From Bactericera cockerelli (Eukaryota > Arthropoda > Insecta > Hemiptera > Triozidae): a DNA stretch of 64,000 nucleotides. Under the pieces are notes generated by a model, which worked only from the letters and a program-made list of their open reading frames with translations, was not told the origin of the DNA and ran no database searches. The position numbers were made by a program, and so were the translations under genes. Position 1 is the first letter of the stretch. Each line of letters opens with the position of its first letter. The DNA is taken from NCBI GenBank assembly GCA_024516035.1, contig CM044956.1, forward strand, positions 10,172,878 to 10,236,877. Direction: 5' to 3'. Positions 2,538 to 62,160 of this stretch are shown here, in pieces.

Positions 2538-2682
2538 GCTGTGAAAACTGTAGACCCGAAACTGGCGGTGGGCAAGCTGCATACACTGTGGATAGAGTTT
2601 GCCAAGTTCTACGAGAGTAATGATCAGCTCGAGGATGCTAGACTGATTCTGGACAAGGCGACCCTGGTGCCCTATACTAAAG
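2538..2682 (+). CDS. Xab2: XAB2 exon (AVKTVDPK...LVPYTK)
   Basis: It is preceded by CTCGCAG and starts in phase 0 with Ala-Val-Lys-Thr-Val-Asp-Pro. It contains the HAT signature [12 protein letters not shown] and [10 protein letters not shown]. It ends AAAG|GTAAAC in phase 1, and the next exon completes a Val codon. The last ~32 bases of the exon plus the donor are the founder of the 50-bp array that follows. Confidence 0.95.
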
Positions 2683-5600
2683 GTAAACTAGGCTGATCCT
2701 AGACAAGGCGACCCTGGTGCCCTATACTAAAGGTAAACTAGGCTGATCCTAGACAAGGCGACCCTGGTGCCCTATACTAAAGGTAAACTAGGCTGATCCT
2801 AGACAAGGCGACCCTGGTGCTCTATACTAAAGGTAAACTAGGCTGATCCTAGACAAGGCGACCCTGGTGCCCTATACTAAAGGTAAACTAGGCTGATCCT
2901 AGACAAGGCGACCCTGGTGCTCTATACTAAAGGTAAACTAGGCTGATCCTAGACAAGGCGACCCTGGTGCCCTATACTAAAGGTAAACTAGGCTGATCCT
3001 AGACAAGGCGACCCTGGTGCTCTATACTAAAGGTAAACTAGGCTGATCCTAGACAAGGCGACCCTGGTGCCCTATACTAAAGGTAAACTAGGCTGATCCT
3101 AGACAAGGCGACCCTGGTGCCCTATACTAAAGGTAAATTGGGCTGATCCTAGACAAGGCGACCCTGGTGCCCTATACTAAAGGTAAACTAAGCTGATCCT
3201 AGACAAGGCGACCCTGGTGCCCTATACTAAAGGTAAACTAGGCTGATCCTAGAAAAGGCGACCCTGGTGCTCTATACTAAAGGTAAACTGGGCTGATCCT
3301 AGACAAGGCGACCCTGGTGCTCTATACTAAAGGTAAACTAGGCTGATCCTAGACAAGGCGACCCTGGTGCTCTATACTAAAGGTAAACTAGGCTGATCCT
3401 AGACAAGGCGACCCTGGTGCTCTATACTAAAGGTAAACTAGGCTGATCCTAGACAAGGTGACCCTGGTGCTCTATACTAAAGGTAAAGTAGGCTGCTCCT
3501 AGACAAGGTGACCCTGGTGCTCTATACTAAAGGTAAACTAGGCTGATCCTAGACAAGGTGACCCTGGTGCTCTATACTAAAGGTAAACTAGGCTGATCCT
3601 AGATAAGGCGACCCTGGTGCCCTATACTAAAGGTAAACCTAACAGGAACAAAACCCATAGGCAGCCCAGCGATCTGGTCGATTTCTAAAGGTCCAAAATA
3701 AAACTTTCGTGAAACACAAATATAATTCATATTGTGTACACGTACGTGCGTGTGTTGTACCTGTCATTGCCTATGTATGAACTGAAGTCAGGTTTAGCTA
3801 CTATTACAGTCGAGCATTGATATGAGAGAACTGGATATATTCCCAGGTGCAATTTAACTATAAGGGAAAATAACTGCATTAAAAGAGGAAAAATTCCGGT
3901 CCATTGTGTTCTCTTATATCCACATTCGACTGTATATACTATTAATATATAAGAGCGCGCGATTGGCTCAGTGGTTAAGCACTCGCTTGCCATACGGAAG
4001 GTCCCGGGTTCGATTCCCCGTGCCGACAAAAATTTGTATTTTTAATTTGGTTACAATTGTTTGTAAGGGATACCTTCCGGTGCCTTGACCCAGCTCGTCT
4101 TGACCCAGCACCTAAATGGGAAGTATTGTGTCTCTTCTCGCCCATCAGAGGGGAGGGATACTACGGGATGGGCAGGCTACAACACAGACCACAAGCGTCT
4201 ACAGTAGCTCCTGTTTCATGGCTACGAAATAAAAAAGGCTGTAAAACACTCATCTTTAAAAAAAAAAAAATGTTGTATTTGATTTCAGTGGAGGACCTGG
4301 CGACGGTGTGGTGCGAGTGGGCGGAGCTAGAGCTGAGGGCAGGCCAGGAGGAGGCGGGGCTTAAGCTCATGGCGCGCGCCACGGCCACGCCCTCGCGTCC
4401 TGTGGCCTATCACGACGAGGCGGAGACAGTGCAGGCGCGCGTCTACAAGAGCATCAAGCTCTGGTCCCTGTACGCGGATCTGGAGGAGTCGTTTGGGACT
4501 TTCAAAGTGAGCGCTCCGGTGTAGCCATGTTACGAAATACAAAAAAAAATATATTACAAAGAAAGATAATGTGTGTTTTGTTTTAAAAAATTGAAATCGA
4601 AGCAAAAAAATATTTATTTATTTTTTCAAAAACGAGCACAATACTTCCGATTTTTAATATTAGAAATTTCTCGGGAGTAAGAATATCATATTTGTGTTAA
4701 TCTAGACGACGCGACGCGGACGTACAATGTGAAAGTATTAGTGCCAAAACGAAGCAACACCACCAACCATGAGGAAGAAATTGACAAATGCTGATCCTAA
4801 GGGCCATATTAGAAAACAGGATTAAAGTTAAGCTAAGCCAGACACACCCTTAAGATAATGTTTGTGTTTTTTTATATTATATTTGTGTTAATGTTGACGA
4901 CGCGACGCGGACGTAAAATGTGAAAGTATTAGTGTCAAAACGAAGCACACCAAATATGAGGAAGAAATTGACAAATGTTGACCCTAAAGGCCATATTAGA
5001 AAACAGGATTCAAGGTAAACTAAGCCAGACACGCCCTCAAGTTGGAGTTTCAACCAATCACAGCGCACTAGAGCACGAGTTGAGCAACAGTCTGGTTTAT
5101 CTTAACTTTAATCCTGTTTCATAATTTGACCCCAAGTAGGTTTAGAAAAAGGCAAAGTGAAAGAACATACTTTTGCTAATCACAATTATTACTAAAACTC
5201 TCCTCACTTTATCAAACTTTCGTCTCGCTGGGGGACGTTAAACAGATACAGTAGCAGGTACCAGCTTTATCAGGGAAAAAGACAATAACACAAATCTTTG
5301 GCGCCCTTAACAGAGTTAGCCTTAATAAGGGCATCCAGCAGTAAAACTTGGAATTGCCATGAACATTAATATATTACAAAATAATATCGAGTTTGGAATT
5401 AGGATTGCCATAAGAAACCAACCTCAAACATGAAACTCTTAGTGGGGGATATAGACCACTAAAACACTTGAGATCAATAAAGAAGAAGGAAAGAGAGGTA
5501 AATGTACCTATAATAAATCTCTAAATGAAACCACAAACATGATCTATAGTTTATAAGTAAAAAAAAAAAAAAAATATAGATTGTAGACTTTTTACAAACT

Positions 5601-8600
5601 CAGCTGTAGACTTCTACAAACTCAAAAATCTCTAAAATGTAATATTTTAAAAATATAAAAATGTTTATGAAAAAAATTAATAATAATAATAAAATGTTTC
5701 TCCCTGGTTCCAGTCTTGCAAGAGTGTATATGATCGCATCATAGACCTGAAGATAGCCACACCCCAGATTATCATCAACTACGGTCTCTTTCTAGAGGAA
5801 AACAACTACTTTGAAGAAGCCTTCAAGGTATTTATTTTGTAACCTACTTCCGAAGTTACTTCAGGGATGAATAGATATGATTTAAACAACCTCTTCTTCA
5901 TTTTTCAATACTACTTTTCCGAAATTTGGTGGCAGCGCTTTTATACTTTTACAATAAAAAAAGAGTTTTGAGCTAAATACATATTTTAGATTTTTTTTAG
6001 ACAACTGAAGAACGCCGGTGGGAAATCATTTCCTTTAAAGATTCTAAGTATTCTGTGAAAGTTTCATAAAAATCCGTCAAGAAACAGCTGTTCGACAAGA
6101 TCACGATGGAATCAATGAACTAGCTGTCCTACATTTCCGATTTCCCTTTTTGTCACTTCACAAAAAATTTAATGTGAGAACTTCAAATTTGAATGATTGT
6201 TTCTCGTACCTATACGTTTTTTTTTTCTGCTGGCTAAAGTTAACTGAGTTTTATGAAGTTCGCTAAAGAATTTTGCTGAAATGAAAGACAAGTATTACAA
6301 ACATTAAGTATCAAGAATATTTTTTTTCTCTCATAGAATCAAGAATATTTATTTATTTAAACAAGTTGACTACTCGATTTTCACACTGTTTGATCTTTTA
6401 TGTATAATATGTATACATGAGACACACGCTCCGTCATTTAAACTCGAAACAGCTTTAGTTTAAGGGGTATCTTGTGCGGGAAAGGGGAGTCCTAGCATCT
6501 CCTCCCCCCGAGAACATTTTTGTTCGTGTTGTTGATCTTGGCGGAAGCTCTCTGGCAACAGTCATCGAACTGAACATCCTCGCAGTCATCATCATTTTGA
6601 TGGGCATACTTGAGACTCTCGCATTTGATCTTCATTTTCTCTTTCAACCTCTTGAGCTTTTCCTTCTCCTTCTGCTTCCTATCCTTCTCCTTCGCCTTTT
6701 CACACTTGTCTCGCTCTTTCTTACACGCCTTCTCTTGCTTCGCCTTCTTCTTCTCGTAGTCCTTGATCTTCTTCCTTCTCTCCTTTTCCTTCTTCTGCCT
6801 CTCCTTCTCTTTCTTCTTGTACTCCTTCTTTATTTCTCGGGCTTTCTTCTTGCATTCCTTCACCAACTGCTTTCTCTTCTTTTTGGCTTCTTTATTCTTC
6901 TGTTTTCGTAGTTTCGACTCCTCCTTGGGATTTCTCGGAGGTCCTTGTATTTGTGTAGGGCAGAACTCTACGGAGTCTTCCTCGTCGCACATATCGTCCT
7001 GGGCATTCTCAGAGTCATAGCAGCTCATGTGACTCATTCTGGTTCCGGTGTCTGGGGTACTTCCAATTTATAGGCGTTTATTACATTAGATTTAGATAGT
7101 AAAACATGAGCAGCATGGATGCTAACTCCTTTTTAGGTGTGGTGTGTGAAACTGGAATTTAGGTGCTGACTGGGAAATTCTAGATTTAGGATGTGAATAG
7201 TGAAAACTTTGTGTGAGAAAACTTTGGTTTGGCTTTATGAGAGACACAGACTGACGAAAATACCATGTTTCTGTAGCGGCCAAAAATACCAACCAGTATA
7301 GATTTCGGGTTGACACGTTTCACAATGTGGTCAGTTCACTACTTTCATTTATATTCCCGGCTTTGGTGTCTTCTGAACAGTCCTATTAGATTTATCAAAT
7401 ATTCAATAGGCATGTTGAATACACCCGTTCTCGTTATGTCACTGAAGTTGAGCAACGTCGAGCGAGGTTAGGACTTGGATGGGAGACCATTCAAATTCGA
7501 AACCTCCTAATGTAGGCTATTTCCGGCCCCGTTGAGGCTGGAAGAGGTTAATGCGTATTGCTGGTTTGTGAGTTTCTAGCGTTGCGTTGGAGGGTAATGT
7601 GTCGAATGACTTGATCCTAGATAGTAAAGAGACACTTATAGCAAAAAAAGAAAAAAAACTAATATACTTTACTTAAAAAAAAGTATATTAGTTAAAAAAC
7701 TAATATAAAAAAAAAATATATACTTTACCATGGCCCAGCGGAGGCGTATAGTAGCACACAGGCTTGCACGTACGGTGACCAGAGTTCGATACCCAGCAAT
7801 GAGAAAAAATTAGTAGGTATTTGTATGTATAGCTCAGTGGTTAAGCACTCGCTTGCCATACGGAAGGTCCCGGGTTCGAACACCCGCGCCGACGAAAATT
7901 TGTATTCAAAATTTGGTTACAGTTGCTTGTAAGGGATACCTTCCGGTGGGCTCGTGTTGACCCAGCACCTAAATGGGAATTACTGTGTCACTTCTCGTCC
8001 AACAGAGGGGAGGCATACTACCGGATGGGCAGGCTACAACACAGACCACAAGCGTCTGCAGTAGCTCCTGTTTCATGGCTATGAAAAAAAGGCTGTGAAA
8101 CACTCATCTTTAAAAACAAAAAAATAGCGACCAGTGGCGGCATTTAGGAGAAGAAATTTGGAATTTCGTAATGCTGTGCTACCCACAACAGTTGTGACAT
8201 TACAACATAAGTGGAACCTCATGTGGTCCCGGTAGCTCAGTGGTCAAGGCGTCTGTCTGACAATCCAAAGGTTGCTGGTGCGAAACCCAGCCGGGACATG
8301 ACAAGTTTTCTTTCTATTTGGGATTTTGACCACATAGTAATACGTCTTGGGATTATTTCTGGAATAATAGGACTCATTAGTCTTAATCGGGTAGTATAAA
8401 TAATATATTAATATTATTATTTTTAAAAAAGTTATCATAATTGTGTTAATCACTTTCGTGATGTCACAATTACTTAAACTCAGGCTGCTAATAAATGTTT
8501 ACTGAACTTGAACCAACGATCTCTAGGTTACAAGTCCGCCGCCTTATCGATCGAACCACTGCGGTCGGTAAAAATAATCGGTTATAAAGTCGGTATAAAT

Positions 8601-11600
8601 AATCAGTTATAAAGTCGGTATAAATAATCGGTTATAAAGTCGGCATAACTAATCGGTTATAAAGTCGGTATAAATAATCGGTCATAAAGTCGGTAAAAAT
8701 AATCGGTTATAAAGTCGGTATAAATAATCGGTTATAAAGTCGGTATAAGTAATCGGTCATAAAGTCGCTATAAATAATCGGTTATAAAGTCGCTATAAAT
8801 AATCGGTTATAAAAGATAATCGGTTATAAAGTCGGTAAAGATAATCGGTTATAAAGTCGGTATAAATAATCGGTTATAAAGTCGGTAACTTGGTCGGTAA
8901 CCGACCTCAGTAGCTTGATCGATAAGGCGGCGGACTTGTAACCTGGAGGTCGGTGGTTCCCGGTTTCAGCGTAGATTTAGTAAAGCGAGTTTGAGTAGTT
9001 GTGATATCACGACAATGATGAACACAAATATGATAACTTAACTTTATAAAGTCGGTACAAACAATCAGTTATCAATTATTTCATTCCATTTATACACAAT
9101 TTCTGCGCAGGCGTACGAGAAGGGCATCGCGCTGTTCAAGTGGCCCTACATCTTCGACATCTGGAACACCTACCTGACCAAGTTCCTGGCCCGCTACGGG
9201 GGCGGCAAGCTGGAGCGGGCCCGCGACCTCTTCGAGCAGTGCCTGGAGGCCTGTCCGGCCCGCTACGCCAAGACGCTGTACCTGCTGTACGCGAGGCTTG
9301 AAGAGGAACATGGGCTGGCCAGGCATGCCATGGCGGTGTACGAGAGAGCCACTAGTGCTGTGCTACCCGAGGAGATGTTTGAGGTGAGTGAGTGAGTAAC
9401 GCAGTGATTAAGTGACTCAGTGAGTGACTCAATGAGTGGATGACTCAGTACCTGCTGTACGCGAGGCTTGAAGAGGAACATGGGCTGGCCAGGCATGCCA
9501 TGGCGGTGTACGAGAGAGCCACTAGTGCTGTGCTACCCGAGGAGATGTTTGAGGTGAGTGAGTGAGTAACGCAGTGATTGAGTGACTCAGTGAGTGACTC
9601 AATGAGTGGATGACTCAGTACCTGTTGTACGCGAGGCTTGAAGAGGAACATGGGCTGGCCAGGCATGCCATGGCGGTGTACGAGAGAGCCACTAGTACTG
9701 TGCTACCCGAGGAGATGTTTGAGGTGAGTGAGTGACTCAATGAGTGACTCAGTGAGTGACTCAATGAGTGGATGACTCAGTACCTGTTGTACGCGAGGCT
9801 TGAAGAGGAACATGGCCTGGCCAGGTATGCCATGGCGGTGTACGAGAGAGCCACTAGTGCTGTGCTACCCGAGGAGATGTTTGAGGTGAGTGAGTGACTC
9901 AGTGAGTGACTCAATGAGTGGATGACTCAGTACCTGTTGTACGCGTGGCTTGAAGAGGAACATGGGCTGGCCAGGCATGCCATGGCGGTGTACGAGAGAG
10001 CCACTAGTGCTGTGCTACCCGAGGAGATGTTTGAGGTGAGTGAGTGACTCAGTGAGTGACTCAATGAGTGGATGACTCAGTACCTGTTGTACGCGTGGCT
10101 TGAAGAGGAACATGGGCTGGCCAGGCATGCCATGGCGGTGTACGAGAGAGCCACTAGTGCTGTGCTACCCGAGGAGATGTTTGAGGTGAGTGAGTGAGTG
10201 ACGCAGTGATTGAGTGACTCAGTGTGTAATTCAGTGAGTGAGTAAGTTATCAGTTGGATAGATATGTTACAGTAGACCCATGGTAAGTATTAGTATATTT
10301 TTATGTTTTGTTATAAGTAGGGCTGTCTGTTACGAAAGCTCTTTTTCACTGCGACCTCGATTTGACATTTAAATTATATTTAACCTTTTTTTTTAAGTTT
10401 GTTACACATATGTACATGTACAAATGTACATACTTTCTATTTTACAGTGTTTCTCACAGATGTTCAACATTTACACAAATCTACATTGTTTTCTCACAGG
10501 TGGTCAACATTTACACAAATCCACGTTGTTTTCCCACAGATGTTCAACATTTACACAAATCTACATTGTTTTCCCACATATGTTCAACATTTACACAAAT
10601 CTACATTGTTTTCCCACAGATATTCAACATTTACACAAATCTACATTGTTTTCCCACAGATGTTCAACATTTACACAAATCTGCATTGTTTTCCCACAGA
10701 TGTTCAACATTTACACAAATCTACATTGTTTTCCCACAGATGTTCAACATTTACACAAATCTACATTGTTTTCCCACAGATGTTCAACATTTACATCAAG
10801 AAAGCTGCCGAGATCTACGGTATTCCCAAGACGCGCCAGATCTATGAAAAAGCCATCGAGATTCTGCCTGAGGGCCCTACACGGGAGATGTGCCTGCGCT
10901 TTGCAGAGATGGAGACCAAGCTAGGTGAGGTTACAGACTTTCACTGAAACCCCTATTTTTGAACAGAACATGTTGAAAATGTCTTTAGACAATCATCCTT
11001 ACGACGAATGTCTGGCTGGGAAGCTTTAAACAGGAAGCAAACAAGCAAGGTTTCTAGCTGGCAGATTTCTAGAAGTTAAAAAAAGTAGTGAAAAAAGCCA
11101 AAGGGTCCGCTAGGCATCTCTGTTTCGGACATTCCAGGATGTCTACTTTAGTCTATTGGGACTTGTCGGCTGTTATGTCCGATGTCTAGTGAACAATATT
11201 TAAAACTCTTTCTTCATTTCTGTTACTCTTCGCCGTGCTTGCAGTTTAAATAAAACATTTGTAGGTAATAACAATAATTATGATTCCGTGTCCGTGAGAT
11301 AGGCACAGATACCTATATCACGGTGGTGAGAGGATTTTATGGACGCCCAGACCTAATGTCTAGGCTCCATAATGTCTAGGCTCAAAAGAGAATGCAGTTG
11401 GCATTAGCACTACCCTTGATAAAGTTTTTTTTTTTTTTTTGCAATTTCAATTTGTTAATATTCCATGTAAGTATTTGTATATTGTATGGGCGAAAACAAT
11501 AAAACAAAATACATATAAACTCTGTTTCGTGTTAATATAGGCCGGTTGGCTGGCGCTACTTGACGAGCGATCGCCTCCCGGCGAGCTTGATATATTCTCA

Positions 11601-14600
11601 CTGTACCTCATTTAAACTCGATTGAATTTATATAATATAATAAATAACTGTAAACAATGTAAACTCTTCTCGCTGTTCCCAGGAGAGATTGACCGCGCCC
11701 GCGGTATCTACGCCCACTGCGCGCAGGTGTGTGACCCACGCGTGTGTCGGGAGTTCTGGTCCGCGTGGAAGAGCTTCGAGATCAAGCATGGGAACGAGGA
11801 CACCATGCGGGAGATGTTGCGGATCCAGCGCAGCGTTCAGGCGGGCTACAACACTCAGGTGTGTATGGTTGTATAGTTTATTTATTTATTTATTTACACT
11901 TTATTAATAGGACATATTACAACAAAAATAATTACAAATTAAAATGCAATATAATAGAAGAAAAAAATAAAGAAAAAATAAATAAAAATATACATAATAT
12001 GTGTCCTAACTAAAGGGCGGGGTTATTGCCTTTGGCGGGCTACAACACTCAGGTGTGTATAGTTGAAGCTGGATATAGGAGAACTGGATATATGTATGAG
12101 AAATCTGGTTATTAGAGGAAAAATTGCAGCTCAAAATTTCCTCTCTCGAATGGAAAATAACCTCTTTTTGAGAGAAACCTGGACACAAGAGAAAAATTTT
12201 CAGGTTAAATTTACCTCTACATATAAAGGAAAATAACCTCCTTATAATAGAAACCGGGATATATAGGTATGAGAAAAAAATCGGTCCCTCGAGTTCTCTT
12301 ATAACCAGGGTCGACTGTATACGTTTTGTTTTTGCTTTTCTTTTAACTACCATTATTACTGCTATTGTTATATTATCTTCCACTATTAGTTCCTATCGTG
12401 TTTTCTATAATCCTTCATTTCTAATTGTTACTTTATTTACATTGTATTTATACTCAAATAAATAAAGAGTTGCTTTGTTAAACTGTTGGCATAATGGGAC
12501 TACCTGTCTTGCGCTGACAGTCTAAATAAAGCACTACTTATACTTATACGTATATAAAAACAAGTAATTGTGGCCGAGTGGAGTGGTGTACTAGACTTAC
12601 ACGCATGGTGACCTGGGTTCTAGTCCCAGCCGGGTAGAGCAGGGACATGGGTTGGTTAGGGAAAATTCTTTAGTCTAATTTTATAAATCTAAAACAGATG
12701 TGTAACTAGTATAATGATTCTATCAATGAGTATATCAGTATAAGCAGAAAAGTGATAAGTTGTACTAGATGTACATGAATATCAGAACATACCTGATCAG
12801 GCTGTCAAATTCCGGCTCTACCCAGGCTGGGTGAAGTTAATTTGGGTTGCTGGTACGATTCCCAGCGAATGGAGGGTAAAACCCCCGTCCTGTCTACCTC
12901 TAGTCAGGACGTTAAAACCAAATAGAATCAATGGACATGAAAGAAGCCTAGACATTGGATCTGGGCGTCCATATAATCCTCTCACCACCGTGATTTAGGT
13001 ATCAATACCTATTTCACGGACACGGAATTATTATTATATAGCAGACTAGCGGGCTGTCGCCCGCTTTGCGGGCCGAGGCATGGCCGTGAAAGCAAAAAGT
13101 CCTTTTTCGCCAATGGCAGGTGTTGTAGTGGGAATTTCGAAAAATCCCGTCTTATTGCACATCTAGACTATAAGACAAAGCTACCTACCAAATTTCAGCT
13201 TCCTAGGACTTACCAGTTCGGAGAAACAGTGATGATCAGTCAGTCAGTGACTTTGACATTTATATATTAAGAAGATGAATATCCATGCTATCAACTAACC
13301 TCTCTATTTTAAGTTCCTCTACTCCTAAAGCACCAACCATTTGTATTTTGATCACCACTTGACTGTCTTGGCTCTACTCTCAGGTGAACATGATGTCAGT
13401 CCAGATGCTGCCAGGAAGTAGCAGCGCAGGAGGGGAGCCCCCCGCCAGCACTCCTCAGGATAACATGCAGCTGCTCGAAGCTAAGGCAGCCGAGATGTCC
13501 TTCGGTGAGTTATTGGGAGTAGACCAGTGGTCTTAACTCTAGACAGGAATAGACCAGTGGTCTTAACTCTAAACAGGAATAGAACAGTAGTATTAACTGT
13601 ACACTTGCAGTAGACCAGTAGTCTTAACTCTAAACAGGAATGTTGTTCTTGTTGTTGTTGTAGCCAGCTTGGCTATAGCTGGAGGGGTGAGTGATGGTCT
13701 CCAGCCAACTTTATTTCAAAGTTGGCTCGTCCTGAACCACATATTTCTATGTGCGATCAACCATCATGAGGACTTGGACTTTTCTTTATAAGCCATTAAA
13801 CCCTTAGGAAACTGCAAGCTAGCCTGGCTTGTAAGGGTTGGCTAGTCAGTTCTTTGTTTATAGTCCTCTAGCGGGACACTGGTTCTCTCTGTTTAACGTC
13901 CCCCAGCCAGACTAAACAGGGATTGGACCAGTAGTCTTAACTCTAAACAGGGATTGTACCAGTAGTCTTAACTCTAAACAGGTAGTGGACCAGTAGTCTT
14001 AACTCTAAACAGGGAGTAGACCAGTAGTCTTAACTCTAGACAGGGAGTAGACCAGTAGTAAAGGCGGCACTCTGTGAATCCAGAGATTCCAGAGGTCGTG
14101 GGTTCGAAACCCAGCAGGGACATGACAAGTTATCCTCCCATTTGGAATTTTTACCACATAATAATATGTCTTGGGCTTACTGCTGGAATAATGGGACTTT
14201 AATAGTCCTAATCGGGCAGTATAAATAAGGTGATATTATTATTATTTTTAACTCTAAGCAGGAGTAAGACCAGTAGTCTTAACTCTAAACAGGAATAGTC
14301 CAGTAGTATTAACTGTACACTTGGAGTAGAACAGTAGTTTTAACTCTATCGGTTCCCTTCCGGAAGGATGGTCCCTGGGACAAGTTTTTTATATTTAATA
14401 AAATGAATTAAAATATATATTACGACCAGTAGTATATTAACTGTACCCTTGGAGTAGACCAGTAGTCTTAACTCTAAACAAGGTGTAGACCAGTAGACTT
14501 AACTCTGAACAGGGAGTGGACCAGTAGTCTTAACTCTAAATAGAGAGTAGACCAGTAGTCTTAACTCTAAACAGAGAGTAGACCAGTAGTATAACTCTAA

Positions 14601-17600
14601 TCAGGGAGTAGACCAGTAGTCTTAACTCTAAACAGGGAGTAGACCAGTAGTCTTAACTCTAAACAGGGAGTAGACCAGTAGTCTTAACTCTAAACAGGGA
14701 GTAGACCAGTGGTCTTAACTCTAAACAGGGAGTAGACCAGTAGACTTACCTCTAAACAGGGAGTAGACCTGTAGACTTAACTCTAAACAGGGAGTAGACC
14801 AGTATTCTTAACTCTAAACAGGGAGTAGACCAGTAGTCTTAACTCTAAACAGGGAGTGGACCAGTAGTCTTAACTCTAAACAGGGAGTGGACCAGTAGTA
14901 TTAACTGTACACTTGGAGTAGACCAGTAGTCTTAACTCTAAACAGGGAGTAGACCAGTAGTCTTAACTCTAAACAGGGAGTGGACCAGTAGTCTTAACTC
15001 TAAACAGGGAGTGGACCAGTAGTATTAACTGTACACTTGGAGTAGACCAGTAGTCTTAACTCTAAACAGGGAGTAGACCAGTAGTCTTAACTCTAAACAG
15101 GGAGTGGACTATTTTAAAGTTATCACATTTGTGTTAATCATTTTTGTGATATCACAACTACTTAAACTCGCTTTACTAAATCTACTCTGAAACCGGGACT
15201 TGAACCACCGACCTCCAGGTTACAAGTGCGCCGCCTTATCAATCAAGCTACTGAGGTCGGTAAGAGGAAGTAGATCAGTTCTACGAACAATTTCCTTCGG
15301 TGATTATTTTTTTGTAAAAATGAGATTATATGAACATATATTTATACTTTTCCACATGCTTTTACTGATCTTAATCAAATTTTGCACACATAATTATTAT
15401 TGAAACCTAGTTATCCAGAATGTTGTCCGAAGCCTCTGGGCTACCTGAGGTCCTAAAAGAGCGCCAAAAGTGTGAAGTACTCCTGATGTTTATACTTATA
15501 AAGGCCATGCCTCGGAATAACAAGGCGGTGTTCCTTCCCCATACCCAAGAGGTTACAAGCTAGTTGGTACAATTATTATTTATTTAGTCACCGTGGCAGA
15601 GTGTGTTAGCGCGCTAAAATAATTCGAAATGTGAAGGAGGCTCTTAGTAATGCTGCGCTACCCACAAAAATTGTGAACAGGCCTTGTGCTTCACCACAAA
15701 TAAAATCATTCATACATCCATAATTATTATTTATTTACAGCCTACTGTTTAGGCGTTTTACTGTATTTACTGATAACGATTAACGAACGCACAACTAGCT
15801 CAGTGTTAAGGTACTCGCTTGCCATGCGGAAGGTCTCGAGTTCGAACCTTGGAGAGCACAAAAAAGTTGTAGTTACACACTCAATTTTTTTTTTTTTTTT
15901 TTTTTTTTTTAAAGGATGAGTGTTTCACAGCCGTTTTTATTTCGTAGCCATGAAACAGGAGCTACTGTAGACGCTTGTGGTCTGTGTTGTAGCCTGCCCA
16001 TCCCGTAGTATGCCTCCCCTCTGATGGGCGAGAAGTGACACAATACTTCCCAATTAGGTGCTGGGTCAACACTAGCGCACCGGAAGGTATCCCTTACAAA
16101 CAATTGTAACCAAACTAAGATTACAAATTTTTGTCGGCACGGGGATCGAACCCGGGACCTTCCGCATGGCAAGCGAGTGCTTAACCACTGAGCTAATCGC
16201 GCGCTATTAGCTATTTTATCCCTTTCTTTTTTACAGCTCCTAGTAGTCACTGTGGCAGAGTGAGTTAGCGCGCTAGGCATTGCACACATGGTGACCTGGG
16301 TTCGATCCCCAGCGGTGTAGGAATTTTTCTGCTCTGCACTTGGATGTTCGGTGTCCACTCATACCTCGTGAGGAAAAATGAGTAGCTGCTTTGATGTGAA
16401 GCAGCGACCAGTAGCAGAATCATAGGCAAAAATATACAAGATATTGTAAATTAAAGTGGTAAAGTCCTATGATTCTGCGCTACCAACTAAAACTGTGACA
16501 TAATAACACAAAGAAAAAGCATTATTATTATATTATTATTATTTTTACAGCTCCTCCACCCAAGGGCGGCAACATTCTCTTCGTGAAGGGCGAGGTGCAG
16601 GGGGTGACAGAGATGTGGCGCCCCTGGCATCGCACGAGGTCAACCCGGACGAGATTGACATCGATGACAGCGATGATGAGGAGGAGGGGGAGGGGGAGGG
16701 GGAGAGTGAGGGTGATAATGACGAGGGTAAGTTGAATTTATTAAACATATTGGATCAAGTTTTATTGACATTTTCATGTCTTTGCTCTGGCACATAACCA
16801 AAATTATGTGACGAAATTATGTAACGATATTATGTAACGATATTATGTAACGAAATATTGAATTGTAAAGGGAGAGAAGAGGGAAAGTGTGTGTCATGCG
16901 CACAATGGCGAAGTATTGAATTGTAGAGGGAGAGAAGAGAGAAGGTATGTGTCATGCGCACAATACGAAATTTGGTCAGTTGGGTTTTGGACCTTGAATA
17001 GTAAAGATGAAAATGTCCCAATGGTTGCAGACTCGTATGCAAGCGTTTTTTTTGTTCATATTTTGTAAGATTTTTTCTGTTTTCATAATGTTTTATTTTC
17101 ATGACATTTGTATCATTGTCTTTTCTTCTTTTCTGTTATGTACAAAATATTTACATAGAATATTTACAATACATAGAAAATGAGATAAATAGAACAAAAC
17201 TTGATCAAGGGCGGTGCTATTGCCAACGGCATTTTCTTTCTTTACTTTCTTTCTTTAAAGTAAGTAAATTAAATTCTTTGGTAAAAGAATTTACTTTCTT
17301 TACTGTAACATGTTATGTTACTATCGGAGTTCTTCAAAATATGTCTTTTGATTTTGTAATATGTCATTAAAAATGTGTTGTTTATGTCAGTTTACCCACT
17401 AAATACGTGGCTATAGAAAGATCATGTTTGGGTTATTTGGGGAGGAAACCAAACCAAACCTAACCATTTTTTTTAGCTTCTAGCCTGCATGACTCATGAG
17501 TAGGTATTTTTACCGGAACAATAATGAATTTGGCATTATTGTACTTTTTTTAACCATTGTTTTTTTGGGGGGGGGTCTAACGTCGCTTTCAACTGCATGG

Positions 17601-42474: not shown

Positions 42475-42519
42475 AAAATAACTATCTCTCTATCCTATCT
42501 TGTCTTGGGGAATTTATGG

Positions 42520-42782: not shown

Positions 42783-42950
42783 GGCTACACGAAGTCGATC
42801 GACATCTGGTCGGTGGGCTGCATCCTGGCTGAGATGATCTCCAACAGACCCATCTTCCCCGGCAAACACTACCTGGACCAGCTGAACCATATCCTCGGCA
42901 TCCTGGGGTCCCCCACTCCCGAGGACCTCTCCTGTATCATCAACGAGAAG
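42783..42950 (+). CDS. rl: ERK-type MAP kinase internal exon ([18 protein letters not shown]...CIINEK)
   Basis: Fifty-six codons matching residues ~204-259 of human ERK2 (kinase subdomains [11 protein letters not shown] and the insert region), with the same intron position before GYTKS as in vertebrates. Arthropod-like residues are [14 protein letters not shown]. At the 3' end the sequence is GAGAAGTAAGAG. The expected AAG|GTAAGAG lacks one G, so either the exon loses a base (AA|GTAAGA) and the next exon is frame-shifted, or a G was lost in sequencing. Exons for the N-lobe, HRD, DFG and TEY segments are not found upstream in this window. Confidence 0.85.
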
Positions 42951-43034
42951 TAAGAGTTTCACTTGAAAAAGTTGGGGTTTACTATGATCGCGATTAGCTC
43001 CGTGGATAAGCACTAAAGTTGGGTGGAAGAGATT

Positions 43035-43350
43035 GCCCCAGGCAATAACCCCGCCCTTTAGTTAGGTCATTACTTTCATTTCTTTTTACTTATTTATTTT
43101 GTCATTTGTTTGTTTTTTCTTAATTTTATACTATTAACATTGTACTCTGTCCTCCTAATAAAATATACTATAATAATAAGCACTCTCTTGCCATGTGGAA
43201 GGTCCCGGGTTCGATCCCTCGTGCCGAATAAAAATTGTATTCTTATAATACTACGAAATGGGCAAGCTACAACACAGATCATAAGCGTCTACAGTAGCTC
43301 CTGTTTCCTGACTACGAAATACAAAAAAGGCTACGAAACTCTCGTCTTTT
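43035..43350. mobile_element. LINE-tail fragment and tRNA-Gly SINE pieces in the ERK intron
   Basis: 43035-43160 inverted has AGGCAATAACCCCGCCCTTTA. 43180-43350 carries CACTCTCTTGCCATGTGGAA, GGTTCGATCCC and the end of the SINE body with its middle deleted. 43385-43545 is an inverted RTE-like tail (CATGGTTGAAGTAGGTTGGT...GGATGCCCTTCCT). Confidence 0.55.
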
Positions 43351-43837
43351 TCAAAATCATTTTCCTTTTCACTTTGCCTTTTCCAAACTTACTTGGGGTT
43401 GGCATAGACCAAGCTCTTCCTCATGGTTGAAGTAGGTTGGTTCTGGTACTCCTACTTCCATATTTTACGCCTGGATGCCCTTCCTTTGAACAAATGTCTC
43501 GGGCTTACCGCTGAAATACAAAACAAGAGGACTGTATCCCCTTAATGTGGGGTAGTCGCTTTATTATTATTATTATTAAACATGTTGGATCAAGTTTTAT
43601 TTACAAATGACATAGAATTACATAGATATTGAAATTAAGAAAACAAAACTTGATCAAGGGCGGTGCTAATGCCAACGGCTTTCTTTTCCGTTACATAGGT
43701 AACGCATTAAATATATGTTACCTATTATGTATATAACTATTAATGCAAATAAATTACAAATTACAAATAATGGGTCTCAAGTCCTGGTGGGGAAGTATAA
43801 ATAAGGTAATATTATTATTACAAACATAGGTGTTGCC

Positions 43838-44030
43838 GACCTCCGTGGCTCAGTGGTTAAGAGCACTGGTTACTGACTCGAAGGTTGCGGGTTCGAATCC
43901 CGGCCGGAGCGGAATTTTCTCACCGAACTTTTCCGTTTCCGGAATGGCATGGATGTAAAGGTAAAAGTTCCCTGAAGTAATGCGAAAGCGGTTCCGGGGC
44001 ACAACTACCTTTTCAAAAAAAAAAAAAAAA
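43838..44030 (+). mobile_element. tRNA-derived SINE
   Basis: Head GCCGACCTCCGTGGCTCAGTGG, GGGTTCGAATCCCGGCCGGAG, body to an 18-base A tail at 44016-44033. Its tail ends about 40 bp before the ERK acceptor at 44072. Confidence 0.75.
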
Positions 44031-44130
44031 AAACATGGGTGTGACCTAATTCAAGCACGACCTTGTTCCAGGCACGCAGCTACCTGCAGTCGCTCCCCTT
44101 CAAGCCCAAGGTCCCGTGGGAGATCCTGTA

Positions 44131-45690
<1,560 letters not shown>

Positions 45691-55157: not shown

Positions 55158-58100
55158 TTACGATTTCTTTAATGTAAAGAAGGAGCGACGCTTGGGTTCA
55201 TCTTTCCTCATCTCCGCGGGCGCGGGCAGGGTCTGGGAGCGGGAGGGGCCGCCGGAAGCCTGCTGCTCACACACATTCGTCAGGGCCGTCACCCACTTGT
55301 TCATCTCCTCGTCGTTCTTGGCCTGGAACAGATACTCGGCGCCAGAGTCCGCCTTCACACGGAACACATGCTTCTTCTTGCTGTAGTCGTCTGCCACCTG
55401 GGACGAGCCACCCCGCAGCTCAAATGGTGTTTCATTCTTGTAGTATACTTCGGGCGAACTCTTGGCGGATTTCTGGTCCTTGTAGAAATACAACTGCGTG
55501 CCTCGCAACGACACGAATATCTTATCCCAGGATCGGTTGGTCGCTCGCTTCGCGATGGCTTCCCACTCATGTTTCCTCACGAGTGTCCCCTCCAGCTGGT
55601 CTGCATCCGCCCCTGATGTCGGTCTGTCGCGTGTCTGTCTCTCCTGGCGAGATTCTCCATCCTTGTCTTTGTCTTTCACTTCCTCGCCGTCCAGTCTGTC
55701 TTTAGCAGACTGATCAGGAGAAGTGGGAGGAGTCTGTTTGGCTGCCAGTTCTTCTTGCCTCTTCCTTTCTTCTTCCTCCTGTCTCTTTTTCAATTCTTTC
55801 AGTTCGAATGTTGTCAATCGTTCCAGGGCCCCGAATCTCTCTTCTTGTGCTATCGCAGACTTTTCAAAGGCTTCATGTTTCTTGATCAAGTTCTCGACTT
55901 CGTCTATAGTTAGGCCTAGTTCCATGCTCATCAGGTAGGGTTCCTGCGCTATAAGCCATGCCTCCGCCACCGCTGCATCCCTCGCGAACTGATACACCTC
56001 CAGGATGAGCTGCAGATTCTCCCACCGCTCTTCCCACCGGTGAAGCAGGGCGTTCCTCTGGTTACTGAGTCCGACGAGCTTCTCTTTGATTTCATTGGAC
56101 GCATAATGGTTGCGAGACAACAACTCTTTCCCCAAGGATATACAAGCTGTAAAGTTATCTTCCCGAGTATCAATCTCAGCTTTCAAACTTTGGTGGTTGT
56201 TCATCAAGAGCTCCACACCACTGACGTCTCGTGCTTTCTCCGATGTGTTCATCTGACGTACCACGTCGTCCATCCACAGCATGAGCGTGCGGACCATGAT
56301 AAGGAACTTGAATAGGTCGCCAGTGTCACCTAGCTTTTGTTTTCTTGCGTCGCAAGCATTCTGTAAGGATGCCCACGCATTCACAACTTCTGCTTCTCGG
56401 TTGGTGATTTCTTTAGCCTTCTCACCGGCGTAGGAGGCTTGGAGTTTAGCAGATTCATTACAGATTTGCTGGACTTGAGACTGGAGGGTTTGAAGATCTT
56501 GAAGGAAATTCTGGTGCTTTCGCTGCAGCGTGTTGACAGAGCCTGCATCACGTCCTAGCTCATCCGACATGGCATGATGCTTCTCAGAGATAGCGACCCA
56601 GGATATCTTTGCAGTCATGGAAGAACTTGTGTAGCTCTCTGGACGCAACAAGCATTTGTGTTCTGGTATTTATCAATTCCAAAAGATCTTGCCAGGCCTC
56701 GTTGAGACCGTCTTTCCATTCAGCAATGGTTGCAGAGTCACTATGACCAGCTGCGATAAGGCTATCAGCAATACCATTCACAGCTGCTACTCTTTCAGTG
56801 CCGATAGCTTCAGTATCACGATCAAATTCTTTGAAGCGCTCCCAGAGCAAAGTGACATGCTCATAGTCTTGACCCAGCTCGTGCGATCCAGCCACTACCT
56901 CTCTTTCCGCAATCCATTGTTCCAGATCATCTACTTCTCTATTCAACATGAACAATTTCAATGCCTCGTCTAATTTAGCTCGTCTTTCTCCGGCCAAGTC
57001 TTTCAGACCAGCATACAATTTATCAACTTGGGATTGTTTTAAAGCTATTTGATCACTTTCTGGATGCAATTCACTTGTTAGCTGGCGAGCAGTTTCTCCT
57101 AATTGTCTTATGGTGTCGGCATAATCTTCTACGGCTAATTCAAGAGTTTCATGTTTTTTCATAAGATTTTGAGTGGAAATCTCATCTTTACCTCTGTCTT
57201 CAACCATCATGTAGAGTTCCTGTTCACTCATCCAGCTCTCAGCTTCACTAGCATCAAACAAGTATTGCTGAGCTTTCTCTGATTGAATCAACTTGCTTCT
57301 TCTCTCGTCTACAGCTTTCTTGAGTTGTTGCCAGCGATCCATAAGATCTTCAATGAGAGAACTGAACTCCGCCGAATCTTCATGACCTTCATCAATCAAC
57401 TTGCGGCCATTGTTACAGATGACATTAACTCTAGGCTCATGATTATCAATTTCCTTAGCCATGGATTGATTTTTCTTCTTCAACATGTGAACATTGAACA
57501 AACTGTTGCCATATTCTGTTGATTTAGCGGAGGGTAGTTTCTCAGCGATCCACAATTTCTCATCTTCAATATCACGTCTGAACTGGTAAGCTTCTTTCTT
57601 CTTTTCAAGAGCACGTTGACGGGCCAACAAAGGTTCTTTAATTTTCTCAAATCTTTGTTCAACAGCAGATTTCTTGACAACAATTTCTTCCATTTTGTCA
57701 GGAACTGTCTTCTGAAGAATTCCAGCTTGATTTTCAAGATCGGATACTTGTTTTGCTTTTACTGCCATTTGTGTTTCAATCATCTGTTGTTTCTGAATTT
57801 GGATATTGACAGAAGCAAGATCTGATGCAGTATCTTCATTTTCAATTTGTTTCTCAAGTTCGTTCATCCATGAGTCGATATCGTCACAAGTTTGATGAAT
57901 AAGAACTTCTCTGTTGGCATCAAACAGGCGCTCACCTTTGTTAGTCGTTGTTTCTTCAAGATCATCAAATTGTTGGCCAAGATCGGATATTTTAGGTCCA
58001 ATCAGTTCAGCTAACTCTGGTTTTTCTTTCATGAGTTCAGATCCAGATTGTTGCACACGTAGAAGTCTATCTTTGTTAGAAGCAATTTCGGCTTCAAAAG

Positions 58101-61100
58101 CTTGATGTCTAGTCCATTTACTGTGAACTGTCTTAGCACTTCTGTAAGTCTCATCTTGTGCAGTGAATTTCTTTTCTTGAACCCATTCACCAAGTTCCTC
58201 ACAATCTTGCAAGAATTGATGGAGTTGCAGTTGATCTTTGAGAGTTTCCATTTGTTGATGTGCTTTTTCTTTGTTAGCGTTTCGCCTCTCATTAATATTA
58301 TCTGCTTTCTTCTTTACCTTGTCTGCAGCATAATGATCTTCATCATTTAATCTATCAGCAAACTGAACAACTCCATTAATTTTGTCATCATTAGCTTCCA
58401 TGGTGGTGAGGAAAGCTTCATGTCTTTTGATTAGATTCTCTACTTGTTCAAGGTTAACCGGTGTTTCGTCCTTTGATAGAACATGCTCTTGTTGAGACAG
58501 AAGTACTTCAGCTTGTTTTGCATCTCTGTTGAACATTTGTAGGTTAAGAGACTGTGACAACAGTTGTTGTCTGTTCTCCCACATCTTGTGTAGTTCTTCC
58601 CATCCATCTCTTAAAGCCTTTAGTCGTTCTCTCAAGAACATGTACTGAGGATCGTCATGGGTTGATGGTTCTGCCGTAACTTTCTCACCATAGTCCATCA
58701 TCTTCTTGTAATCCTCAGTGTAGTTATCAATCTCTTCTCGAATAGCTTGATGCTGGTTCAATAACTTCTCTGCATCAGCTAAGCTGCTTGGTGTATCCTC
58801 AGATGCAACATCGGTTTGAGTCTTAGTAAGCCAGACCTGGAAGTGGTCAAGATCACGTAGGAATCTATGCAGATCACCAGCTTCTTCCAATTTAGAGTCA
58901 CGCTCTTTGAGCATTTGTGTGAGTTCTTCCCATATAATACGGATTTGCTTAATACGTTCTCTGATGGCTTCTGCTTCTTCAGGATGCTCCTTCTCAATGG
59001 CCACAGCTTCAGCTTCCAAAGAGTCGAGCTTTGCTTGAATCGCTGCCAAGTCTCGCTCCATACCGGAGAGACGACGCTGTAAGGTCATGATGCCAGTAAG
59101 ATCCATTTCCAAACTGTCAGTTGATTGGAGAATTCGTTTCTTATCTTCAATCCAGGATACGGTTTCTCTGCACTCAATGTGGAACGTTTGAACTCCATGG
59201 GCAGAGTTCAGTTCGTCACGCTTACCTTCGGCCTTCTCTCTTAGTCCTGCCCAATCGTGATTGAGCTGATTCTGTCGAGTGATTATTTCTGTGCTATTAG
59301 GATGCTCAACATGTAACAGTTGCCTTGCAAGTTGATTGACAACGGCAACACGAGATGCATTTGCATTCATTTCTTTATCGAAACCATCATATCTGTGCTT
59401 CATGATTTCTACGTCTTCAATGTCTTTTCCTGGAACCATGGTTACTAACATGCGGTCTTTCTCACCAATCCATTGTTGTACACCATCAGCTTCACTGAAC
59501 AGTTTGTACAACGACAAAGCGTCAAGCAGACGTTGTTTGCGCAATTTAGCCAATTCCAAGAGTTCTTTATATCTGAATTCAATAGACTCCAGCCTTTCAA
59601 GGACTTCTTCAGATTCCTTATCTTGGTCACCCAATTGCGAGGCTTGATTGCGAAGAGCTTCAATTGTGGATGTGTAGTTCTTGAGTTCTTCAGTAACATC
59701 TTTGTGTTTCTTCAATAGAGATTGAACATTTGCTTCATCTCTACCAACATCTTCAGAAGACACAAGTCGTACAGTATCCAACATCCAGATATCGACATCA
59801 ACCGCATCAGTAAAGAATTGATGGAAATCTACTGCTTCCTCTAGTCGTTTCCTTCTAAAAGCTGCCAGATCCAGTAGATGTTGCCACATAGCCATCGTAT
59901 CTTGAAGTCTACCTCGAATACGATCAGCACCAAAGTGTTGTTGATTGACGAGTTCGTCTCCAACAGCAATGACACTCATCAGTTGAGGTTCATGAGATTG
60001 GATCTCGTCTTCCAAAGCCTTGTGTTTGGAAAGTAGAAGGTTGATTGTAGTAAGATCATGACCAATGTCACCAGTAGAAACAATCTGTTCTTTCTCTTTG
60101 ATCCAGTTCTCTTCATCTGCCATGTCCCAGTAAAGTTGCCATAACTTGCGACTTTCTTCAAGACGAGCTCTCCTTTCGACTGCAAGTTTGACGAGCTCTG
60201 AGTAAGCATCTTCCAATTGTTGCACACGCTCCACAATGATGGCTGGATCACAAGGACGGAAACCTTCGTTTGTCTCCTCATCAAGGAACCTTTGAGATTG
60301 TTGTACAACGCTTTTAACTCTTTCTCCAAGGACGTTTATATCAGCTTCTACCAAGCTGTGTTTCTGCAGAAGATCTTCAACTCCCATGAGATGCTTGCCA
60401 TAATCGTCAGACAAGAGACGCATTTTGAGTTCTTCCATGGAGTCAAGGATGTACAGCATTTCTTGGAAGCTCTGTTGTAGATGTAACGATGATTCTAATC
60501 TCATGCGACGAGCTTTCAGTAATTCAAGTAAGTAATTCCAGAGGCGCAGTACATTTTCTTTTCTGGCGTTGATACGGTCGATGTCATGGTACTTCTCGGC
60601 TTCGAGTTCCTGACTTACAGTGACCACGGCTTGCACACGCTCCTCATAAGCAAAGATATCAGTTTCGATAGCCTCGTGTTTCTTAGCTGCAGCTTCGACG
60701 GCACCCAAGTCAAATCCAAAGTTATCTTGAGAGACAAGACGTTGGTTTTCACTCAACCAAGTTTCTCTCATGCTTGCTTTTCTATTAAATCTAGCTGCCA
60801 GTTGTTCAAGCTTTTCTTGGCGAATCAGTTCTTCTCTCAAAGCTAATTCACGTTCGTGCTCTGATTTCTCAAGCCTTTCCCACGCTTTGTTGATGTCAGA
60901 AATCATTTTACCTTCTCTGGGTGTATAAGGTTTTTGGTTATTGGCCCTCATTTTAGACTGCAATGTGAATAAGAGTACTTCTAAGTTACCTTTCTCAACA
61001 AACTTGGGCGGCTTCTCAACTGTTCGGTAGTTGTTGAACTGAAGTAGTTGCTGCTGCACACCAACCAATGAATTTGCGAATTGACGGTCACCAAGAGAGG

Positions 61101-62070
61101 CAATAGTTTCTTGAATCCAGCGGAGGAGGTCACTCGTGAGGCTTTCATACTCGTGAATCATGCGATCATTGTCCATGGCAATACCAACGACTTTGCCAAT
61201 TCGTTTACCTTGCACTGTTTCTTGTTTCATCTTGCTGAAGTAGTGGTAGTAGGTTACGACGTAGGTGATGATAGATTTCTCATCAGGTTGTTCAACAAAC
61301 ACGTCCTCAGCATCAAGCAGCTTGGTAAGCCCCAGCTTGTCTTCAGCAACATTGAACGCATTGTTCAGATTGTACATTGCATTAGACTTGGTCAGCTTTT
61401 CAATCTGAATCAGATCAGGCCTGTGCTTGTGAATGATTGCGTTGAAAGCAAGACCATCTCGCCACGAGGTTGTAAAGTTCCTGACATTCACATTGTGATA
61501 TCCCGCTGTCTTCATTTGACACCAAAGCAGCAAAGCGTCCTTGGCGGATTTAGTTTCCTGGTTATCAGTTTCTTCAATAGTAATATCTTGAATTTGAAAT
61601 CTCAAAATAATGGTCCAGATAAGACCGAGGGAAAGTCTAGGATTGCCATCTACTATGTCATGTGATCCCATGTTTTCTAAATGTACACGTTGTTCTCTAA
61701 GGAACTGCAAAGCTTTGTCAACATTCTCCAGACAATGGATCCTCATTTTTCCTTTAGTAGGTCTGGGAAGTCTCTCACCTGACAGCACTTCCAACAACTT
61801 CAGCAACATCTTGCCATCACGTAGGTCTACGTACAGATCCCCTATCCTACAGGAAACTCTTACCAGGTGTGAATTGACCCATTTTTGAAACGTTTTCTTT
61901 TGTACACTTTCTCGCTCATCAGCCAAAGCCTTGATACGAGATCGTTCGAATAGTCGGGATGAGGAGTTGCCTCCGTCATATTCGTAATCCTCAGTATTCT
62001 CCTGCGTACCGGAGTGACCAGTCTGGGGCAGGGTGATGTCCCAGCGGGCAAGGGAGATGTCCGTCGTCAT
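55158..62070 (-). CDS. beta-Spec: Beta-spectrin, full length in one coding exon, one frameshift
   Basis: Actin-binding, membrane-skeleton cross-linker that pairs with alpha-spectrin and binds ankyrin. ATG at 62070 begins MTTDISLARWD; stop at 55158-55160. Total is about 2,303 residues, the usual length for arthropod beta-spectrin. Order: disordered start; two calponin-homology domains (about residues 56-160 and 173-278; FQKWVNSHL, LLLWCQMKTAGYHNVNV, DGLAFNAIIHKHRPDL); about 17 triple-helical spectrin repeats; a Lys/Glu linker; a C-terminal PH domain (about 2159-2269; LVRKHEWEAIAKRATNRSW, KKKHVFRVKADSGAEYLFQA). The frame breaks once near 56592, inside repeat sequence: ILGR-ISEKHHAMSDELG is interrupted by one extra base. 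The upstream Met at 62142 is ignored because MTTDIS is the conserved start and a splice acceptor lies between them. The 5' and 3' ends of the ORF are more GC-rich than its middle. Confidence 0.95.
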
Positions 62071-62160
62071 GGCGGCGCCACCTGGGAACACAAGAGAATC
62101 AATGGTCAGACAATCTACACATCTGTACCCACCTGGGAACACAAGAGAAACAACGGTCAG
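62071..62160 (-). promoter_or_regulatory. Beta-spectrin 5' splice acceptor, tandemly duplicated
   Basis: On minus, CTTGTGTTCCCAG|GTGGCGCCGCC precedes the ATG, so an upstream non-coding exon is expected. A second CTTGTGTTCCCAG|GTGGGTACAG lies 51 bp further upstream, within a direct repeat of about 51 bp (GTGTAGATTGTCTGACC in both). Confidence 0.75.

What the first reader, a model, noticed from the sequence alone, without database searches (positions are those of the whole stretch)
2538..62160. Splice junctions are repeatedly the seed of tandem or insertional duplication
In three unrelated genes, at least eight splice sites are duplicated with the junction inside the repeat. XAB2: donor x20 (2683), exon-3'-part plus donor x6 (9279-10185), acceptor x9 (10460-10780), donor x2 (11859/12053), acceptor x2 by SINE target duplication (16236/16550), terminal exon x2. 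ERK: acceptor x3 (42553-42783). Spectrin: acceptor x2 (62082/62133). Further arrays start within ~15 bp of a donor (13517) or at it (45335). Coding exons fill only about 15% of the window and the junctions themselves far less, so this looks non-random. A bias of replication slippage, R-loops or transposon targeting toward exon-intron borders would be a notable genome-evolution process, and duplicate sites may act as decoys or buffers for splicing.
Basis: partly seen in the sequence, partly recalled or inferred. Interest (0 to 1): 0.9.

Follow-up and report, generated by a model that had tools for sequence, protein, structure and literature searches.

The report
Tandem-copied splice junctions in insect genes
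Several exon-intron borders in this stretch of insect DNA have been copied head to tail, up to twenty times, into the neighbouring intron; the same oddity is on record from lancelets under the name 'mirages', so it is a known kind of structure seen in a new place, and whether borders are truly favoured targets cannot be settled from one window.

Summary
Partly right. Of eight claimed junction duplications, five are tandem arrays whose unit contains a splice junction: XAB2/SYF1 donor x20, XAB2 donor x6, XAB2 acceptor x9, ERK-fragment acceptor x3, beta-spectrin acceptor x2. Two are direct repeats flanking dispersed elements, i.e. target-site duplications. The terminal-exon copy lacks the junction. 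The two 'further arrays' are a dispersed minisatellite and a dispersed repeat. In XAB2 the outermost copy keeps the frame; 24 of 24 extra donors and 5 of 7 intact extra acceptors give early stops, so they are poor 'buffers'. The species groups within Hemiptera. Tandem repeats spanning exon-intron borders are known as 'mirages' in amphioxus; this looks like the same kind in an insect. If progenitor units fall at random, 0.44-0.84 junction arrays are expected against 5 (P 0.00004-0.0012). The excess weakens with stricter overlap, without ERK, or when whole arrays are slid (P up to 0.07; 0.37 in XAB2 alone), and the window was picked after the fact. Junction bias is possible, not shown. The genome-wide test could not be run: the genome tool answered none of nine requests.

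The parts
2638..3638 (+). Tandem array, 50-bp unit x20, unit = 45 nt of XAB2 exon end + 5 nt of intron start; 20 intact donors, authentic one first (2682|2683)
   Evidence: TRF 97% matches; junction BLAST; unit alignment; 19 of 19 extra donors give a stop at codon 52 counted from 0; no copy of the unit elsewhere in the window
9278..10240 (+). Tandem array, 150-170-bp unit x6, unit = 106 nt of XAB2 exon end + donor + 44-64 nt intron; authentic donor first (9383|9384)
   Evidence: 5 of 5 extra donors give a premature stop; no copy elsewhere in the window
10443..10795 (+). Tandem array, 40-bp unit x9, unit = 24 nt intron end + 16 nt exon start; 8 of 9 copies keep AG, authentic acceptor last (10779|10780)
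   Evidence: 5 of 7 intact extra acceptors give premature stops, 2 (10540, 10660) stay open through exon 13384-13504
42516..42811 (+). Tandem array, ~114-bp unit x3, unit = 85 nt intron end + 29 nt ERK exon start; acceptors before 42553, 42667 and 42783 (authentic)
   Evidence: extra acceptors add 230 and 116 nt, shift the frame and reach stops
62078..62179 (-). Tandem duplication, 51-bp unit x2, at the acceptor before the beta-spectrin start codon; 47 nt intronic, 4 nt exonic
11840..12065 (+). XAB2 donor 11858|11859 inside a 32-nt direct repeat (11840-11871, 12034-12065; 1 mismatch) around an insert with partial copies at 43040-43120 and 46400-46521; read as a target-site duplication of a retroposon
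   Evidence: the element class is judged by eye
16228..16555 (+). XAB2 acceptor 16550|16551 inside a 14-nt direct repeat (16228-16241, 16542-16555) around a SINE-like insert with partial copies at 12563, 15586, 25997-26234 and 51559-51642
   Evidence: tRNA-type judged by eye, no Rfam match there at gathering score
19574..19647 (+). Diverged copy (78%) of the XAB2 terminal exon (19188-19264); lacks the junction, so not part of the pattern
2538..19264 (+). 3' half of XAB2/SYF1: exons 2538-2682, 4289-4506, 5714-5827, 9111-9383, 10780-10924, 11683-11858, 13384-13504, 16551-16726, 19188-19264 (to the stop codon)
   Evidence: joints 1-6 align without gaps to 12 homologues that I chose from 120 listed; single-base frameshift in exon 16551-16726
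42783..45334 (+). ERK (MAPK) fragment: residues ~203-325 only, two exons; second exon interrupted by a 1062-bp element (44140-45201) with similar inverted ends and a 9-nt target-site duplication
55158..62081 (-). beta-spectrin coding sequence as one exon, CH domains to PH domain, with one single-base frameshift near 56592

Best explanation
The core of the finding is a set of 'mirages': local tandem duplications whose unit happened to straddle a splice junction. Shown: the arrays, their units, and that the extra copies lie on the intron side (downstream of a donor, upstream of an acceptor). Shown for XAB2: the outermost copy keeps the reading frame, and the protein it gives matches other insects at those joints. 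Inferred: such a duplication is tolerated because the spliceosome can still use the outer site and discard the copies with the intron; once in the intron the copies are free to expand and be homogenised by unequal exchange or slippage, lengthening the intron. Two further junction duplications are target-site duplications of dispersed elements. Not shown: that junctions are preferred targets. The local excess is nominally significant but post hoc.
For: Arrays and junction copies. Exon model: with gap-free joints 1-6 against 12 SYF1 homologues chosen from 120 listed. Reading-frame test: 24 of 24 extra XAB2 donors and 5 of 7 intact extra acceptors give premature stops, the authentic outer sites do not; both extra ERK acceptors shift the frame. 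Expansion by exchange: in the 50-bp array units 3-9 alternate between two variants at one base, and units 2-20 share three bases that the exon copy (unit 1) lacks. 59.5% of intron 2683-4288 and 85.5% of intron 9384-10779 lie in the arrays. Units are locus-specific: one weak 20-nt match (E 0.005) elsewhere in the window for five units. Direct repeats around dispersed elements. The same structure in amphioxus, where RT-PCR suggested that regular splicing is not disturbed: PMC3087553 and PMC3902484 (passages seen). Excess: 5 arrays against 0.44-0.84 expected under the progenitor-unit null.
Against: No RNA data: which copies are used is inferred. The spectrin unit has only 4 exonic nt and the 50-bp unit only 5 intronic nt, so the overlap is slight in two of five cases. 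Two extra acceptors (10540, 10660) would keep the frame. Exclusion of the border copy from homogenisation, reported for amphioxus, is visible in one of the three XAB2 arrays. Only a fragment of ERK was found, so its acceptor may not be functional. Whole-array sliding gives weak P values (0.011-0.072; 0.22-0.37 in XAB2 alone).
Confidence: 0.78

Rival explanations
1. Junction bias: exon-intron borders in this lineage are truly preferred seeds of tandem duplication (for example through co-transcriptional R-loops or breaks), so mirages are enriched genome-wide.
For: 5 junction arrays against 0.44-0.84 expected under the unit null, P 0.00004-0.0012; without ERK 4 against 0.65, P 0.0034; within XAB2 3 against 0.36-0.48, P 0.003-0.008; both ends of one intron carry unrelated arrays. 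Amphioxus shows the same in Adh3, TnC, globin genes and PGBD5.
Against: Window and feature chosen after the fact. With >=10 nt on both sides 3 arrays remain (P 0.004-0.015); without ERK 2 (P 0.025-0.061). If the non-junction arrays were undercounted twofold, P is 0.017. Overlap null P 0.011-0.072. No mechanism tested.
Confidence: 0.25
2. Chance plus attention: a repeat-rich genome in which a reader drawn to exons notices arrays that touch them.
For: Arrays of period >=20 cover 14.3% of the window and the overlap null already expects 1.9-2.4 arrays touching a junction. Three of the eight listed items, and both 'further arrays', turn out to be something else.
Against: The overlap null ignores that the repeated unit itself contains the junction; the fitting null expects fewer than one.
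Confidence: 0.45
3. Intron gain by tandem duplication (Rogers model): the duplication made the introns.
For: Tandem duplication across a boundary has made an intron in potato RdRp (PMC4974935, abstract seen) and exon duplication is proposed for some Drosophila introns (PMC2891723, passages seen).
Against: The far ends of these introns do not match the repeated unit: the junction at XAB2 acceptor 4289 has no hit to the 50-bp array, and the arrays at the two ends of intron 9384-10779 do not match each other. Intron ages were not tested.
Confidence: 0.06
4. The copies serve splicing as decoys, enhancers or back-ups.
For: 20 of 20 copies of one donor, 6 of 6 of another and 8 of 9 copies of one acceptor keep the splice dinucleotide.
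Against: High copy identity (young arrays) explains intact sites without selection. As back-ups they mostly fail: 24 of 24 extra donors and 5 of 7 intact extra acceptors in XAB2 give early stops.
Confidence: 0.07
5. Assembly artefact.
For: Each of the three coding regions carries a single-base frameshift or a shifted joint, so base-level accuracy may be poor; one amphioxus mirage appeared misassembled in the draft genome (PMC3087553).
Against: Copies carry private substitutions and a two-unit alternation, not expected from simple read duplication; five separate junctions.
Confidence: 0.07

Closest known systems
'Mirages' of amphioxus (minisatellite-like tandem duplications of exon-intron borders in Adh3, TnC, globin genes; PGBD5)
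   Same: Tandem units span a donor or an acceptor; both 5' and 3' borders are hit; many extra copies keep AG/GT signals; unit lengths there 10-160 bp, here 40-170 bp.
   Different: Here in an insect; up to 20 copies (6 and 3 in the globin haplotypes); one gene with three arrays and one intron 85.5% within arrays of its own two borders. Undisturbed splicing, suggested by RT-PCR in amphioxus, is only inferred here.
[quoted passage not shown] potato RdRp PMC4974935; Drosophila PMC2891723)
   Same: A tandem duplication carries splice signals; in potato it crosses an intron-exon boundary.
   Different: No sign of a new intron: far intron ends do not match the unit.
Internal tandem repeats at human exon-intron boundaries in segmental duplications (PMC2812944)
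   Same: Minisatellites at exon-intron borders.
   Different: There they may form novel introns and alter transcripts; here the outer site can restore the transcript. Passages seen only.
Target-site duplication by mobile elements
   Same: Explains 11840/12034 and 16228/16542: short direct repeats flanking a dispersed element.
   Different: Not tandem arrays; do not belong with the other five.

Membership tests
mirage (tandem repeat spanning an exon-intron border) | Head-to-tail minisatellite-like array | tested here: met
   5 of 5: TRF arrays, 2-20 copies, 89-97% matches
mirage (tandem repeat spanning an exon-intron border) | Unit contains both exonic and intronic sequence | tested here: met
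   5 of 5 arrays, two of them barely; exonic/intronic nt 45/5, 106/64, 16/24, 29/85, 4/47
mirage (tandem repeat spanning an exon-intron border) | Both donor and acceptor borders affected | tested here: met
   2 donor arrays, 3 acceptor arrays
mirage (tandem repeat spanning an exon-intron border) | Border copy excluded from homogenisation | tested here: inconclusive
   Seen in the 50-bp array (3 fixed differences), not evident in the 150-170-bp and 40-bp arrays
mirage (tandem repeat spanning an exon-intron border) | Splicing undisturbed in mRNA | not testable with these tools
   No RNA data; outer-site use inferred from frame and homologues
mirage (tandem repeat spanning an exon-intron border) | Copy-number instability between haplotypes or cells | not testable with these tools
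   One sequence only
intron gain by tandem duplication | Both ends of the intron derive from the duplicated unit | tested here: not met
   No match between unit and far splice site for introns 2683-4288 and 9384-10779; other introns not examined
introner / transposon-made intron | Intron body is a dispersed element family | tested here: not met
   Five whole units searched against the window: one 20-nt match (E 0.005) outside the own arrays; rest of the genome not searchable
target-site duplication (11840/12034, 16228/16542) | Direct repeats flank a dispersed repeat | tested here: met

The most novel reading that the evidence does not exclude
In this hemipteran lineage tandem duplication is biased toward exon-intron borders genome-wide, so that introns grow largely by copying their own ends, as intron 9384-10779 of XAB2 (85.5% within arrays of its two borders) would illustrate; mirages would then be a general, independently arisen mode of intron growth in animals rather than a lancelet oddity.
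Probability: 0.22. Interest if true: 0.68.

Novelty: new member of a known kind. Interest (0 to 1): 0.42.

Why it matters
If mirages occur in insects as well as lancelets, tandem copying of splice borders is a recurrent way to lengthen introns and to expose genes to decoy splice sites. The claim of a junction bias becomes directly countable in any assembled genome with annotation. It would bear on how introns grow and on where new introns come from.

Tried and rejected
Own-genome search (for a genome-wide count) was asked nine times and never answered. ARAGORN found no tRNA genes. ERK N-terminal (residues 1-199) and C-terminal (beyond 325) exons were looked for with tblastn; apart from the listed exons and their copies only chance-level hits (E 0.34 or worse) appeared. 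Considered and rejected: one common cause for all eight items (three differ in kind); buffering role; introner or intron gain. Statistics: the 30 arrays were merged by hand from 78 TRF rows, rows of period below 20 dropped. In one search the rows asking for >=10 nt on both sides used wrong observed counts and are replaced. In one search three of five BLAST-only entries stand in for one AT-rich cluster (32-37 kb); searches use four BLAST-only loci instead. compress site positions proportionally, an approximation; collapses the arrays exactly. The self-BLAST missed the spectrin 51-bp duplication. Literature: nine searches (one search found no paper) over open-licence PubMed Central only; of five papers opened, those using the word mirage concern amphioxus. 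Other listed papers were seen as titles and abstract starts only. The original Adh3 and TnC papers were not seen; I know them through PMC3087553 and PMC3902484.
Full report
What the window is. The window is insect DNA. Its beta-spectrin is 97% identical to an unnamed protein and 88% to Periplaneta and Cryptotermes. In a FastTree of the window and 42 sequences chosen from the 120 listed (seven of them from unnamed sources) it groups with that unnamed protein, then with phylloxera (Daktulosphaira, support 0.947), inside Hemiptera (0.998); the node joining this group to mealybug and whitefly has only 0.557. I call it a hemipteran, probably sternorrhynchan.

Gene models. Nine exons of the 3' half of XAB2/SYF1 were placed with GT-AG ends and a continuous frame up to a single-base frameshift in exon 16551-16726. 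Joints 1 to 6 align without gaps to 12 homologues that I chose from 120 listed; joints 7 and 8 lie in variable sequence. Of ERK only residues about 203-325 were found, in two exons, with a typed human ERK2 query; other parts gave only chance-level hits (E 0.34 or worse). The second exon holds a 1062-bp element with similar inverted ends and a 9-nt target-site duplication. I treat the ERK locus as a fragment; that its other exons lie beyond the window is not excluded. beta-Spectrin is one long coding exon with one single-base frameshift. The alignment to the relative P0001 begins within one nucleotide of the proposed acceptor, which fits that acceptor. In all I used 22 splice sites: 17 in XAB2, 4 in ERK, 1 in spectrin.

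Checking each claim. Each junction +-40 nt was searched against the window. Five of 22 junctions lie in tandem arrays: XAB2 donors 2682 (20 copies) and 9383 (6 copies), XAB2 acceptor 10780 (9 copies, 8 with AG), ERK acceptor 42783 (3 copies), spectrin acceptor 62081 (2 copies). XAB2 donor 11858 and acceptor 16551 lie in direct repeats of 32 nt (1 mismatch) and 14 nt (none) that flank inserts with partial copies elsewhere in the window; I read these as target-site duplications. The terminal-exon copy matches the exon from 19193 on and leaves out the acceptor. The array at 13517 is a 31-bp minisatellite with relatives at 46.8-47.0 and 49.1-49.4 kb. The feature at 45335 is a repeat with copies at four other places; that it and the insert at 16242 resemble tRNA-type SINEs is my reading by eye, and Rfam gave no match at either place at gathering score.

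Do the copies matter for splicing? Joining each alternative XAB2 site to the other exons up to 13504 gives a premature stop for 19 of 19 extra donors in the first array, 5 of 5 in the second, and 5 of 7 intact extra acceptors in the third; the two open ones (10540, 10660) would add 80 and 40 residues. The two extra ERK acceptors shift the frame and reach stops. The spectrin copy lies upstream of the start codon and would add 51 nt. So in XAB2 the outermost copy is the one compatible with the protein, and inner copies would be removed with the intron. That the cell does so is inferred.

How the arrays grew. In the 50-bp array, units 2-20 share three bases that differ from the exon copy, and units 3-9 alternate between two variants at one base, as expected from doubling of a two-unit block. 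Arrays make up 59.5% of intron 2683-4288 and 85.5% of intron 9384-10779. The five units have no other copies in the window beyond one 20-nt match at E 0.005. Slippage or unequal exchange is the ordinary explanation; the seed event is not recoverable.

Is it more than chance? Tandem arrays of period >=20, merged by hand from TRF, number 30 (25 families) and cover 14.3% of the window. Null A slides whole arrays: 1.9-2.4 arrays touch a junction by chance, P 0.011-0.072; within XAB2 alone 1.75-2.15 against 3, P 0.22-0.37. Null B places one progenitor unit per array at random, which fits a tandem duplication better: 0.44-0.60 expected against 5, P 0.00004-0.0003; within XAB2 0.36-0.48 against 3, P 0.003-0.008; in the ERK locus 0.31 against 1, P 0.28. 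With further arrays found only by self-BLAST 0.66-0.84 are expected, P 0.0004-0.0012; without ERK 0.65 against 4, P 0.0034. Sensitivity: >=5 nt of unit on each side leaves 4 arrays (P 0.0008-0.003); >=10 nt leaves 3 (P 0.004-0.015); without ERK these become 3 (P 0.004-0.012) and 2 (P 0.025-0.061). Doubling the number of non-junction arrays gives P 0.017. The window and the feature were chosen because they looked odd, so these values overstate the case. I conclude that an excess is suggested, not established. The genome-wide test was not possible.

What it is like. This structure was named 'mirages' in amphioxus. [quoted passage not shown] PMC3902484 (passage seen) adds PGBD5 and names TnC. Tandem duplication across a boundary made an intron in potato (PMC4974935, abstract seen), exon duplication is proposed for some Drosophila introns (PMC2891723, passages), and internal tandem repeats at human exon-intron boundaries may form introns (PMC2812944, passages). 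Here the far ends of the two introns examined do not match the units. In nine searches of an open-licence library I met the term mirage in this sense only for amphioxus; other listed papers were seen as titles and abstract starts.

Verdict. Five of eight claimed items stand as one coherent thing, apparently insect mirages; two are footprints of mobile elements; one is not a junction duplication. Novelty: new member of a known kind in a new lineage, with high copy number and one intron built mostly from arrays of its own borders.

Noticed in passing
55158-62081 (-): beta-Spectrin coding sequence is a single ~6.9-kb exon with one single-base frameshift but otherwise highly conserved (97% over 1830 residues to an unnamed relative); either a retrogene in use or an unusually intron-poor gene.
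   Followed up: partly
44140-45201: A 1062-bp element with similar inverted ends, a 45-bp internal array (x13) and a 9-nt target-site duplication sits inside an ERK coding exon.
   Followed up: partly
16551-16726; 42949; 56592: Each of the three coding regions has a single-base frameshift or a shifted joint, which may point to base-level assembly errors.
   Followed up: partly
20043-20164 (-), 25095-25205 (-): Two 5S-rRNA matches at gathering score, perhaps 5S-derived SINEs; also tRNA matches at 20400-20482 and 43841-43909.
   Followed up: no
13516-15109, 46836-47015, 49118-49367: A 31-bp minisatellite and related 38-bp arrays (73-79% alike over 51-57 nt) recur at distant sites in the window.
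   Followed up: partly
6492-7067 (-): A 191-aa lysine/glutamate-rich open reading frame without Pfam match lies on the opposite strand inside a XAB2 intron.
   Followed up: no
16801-16971, 20687-20729, 51775-51938: Related 13-bp arrays (two of the three places also with 58-bp units) appear three times, by eye probably one transposon family.
   Followed up: no
1-1735: The two ends of this stretch are inverted repeats of each other (226 nt, 86%), possibly another terminal-inverted-repeat element.
   Followed up: partly
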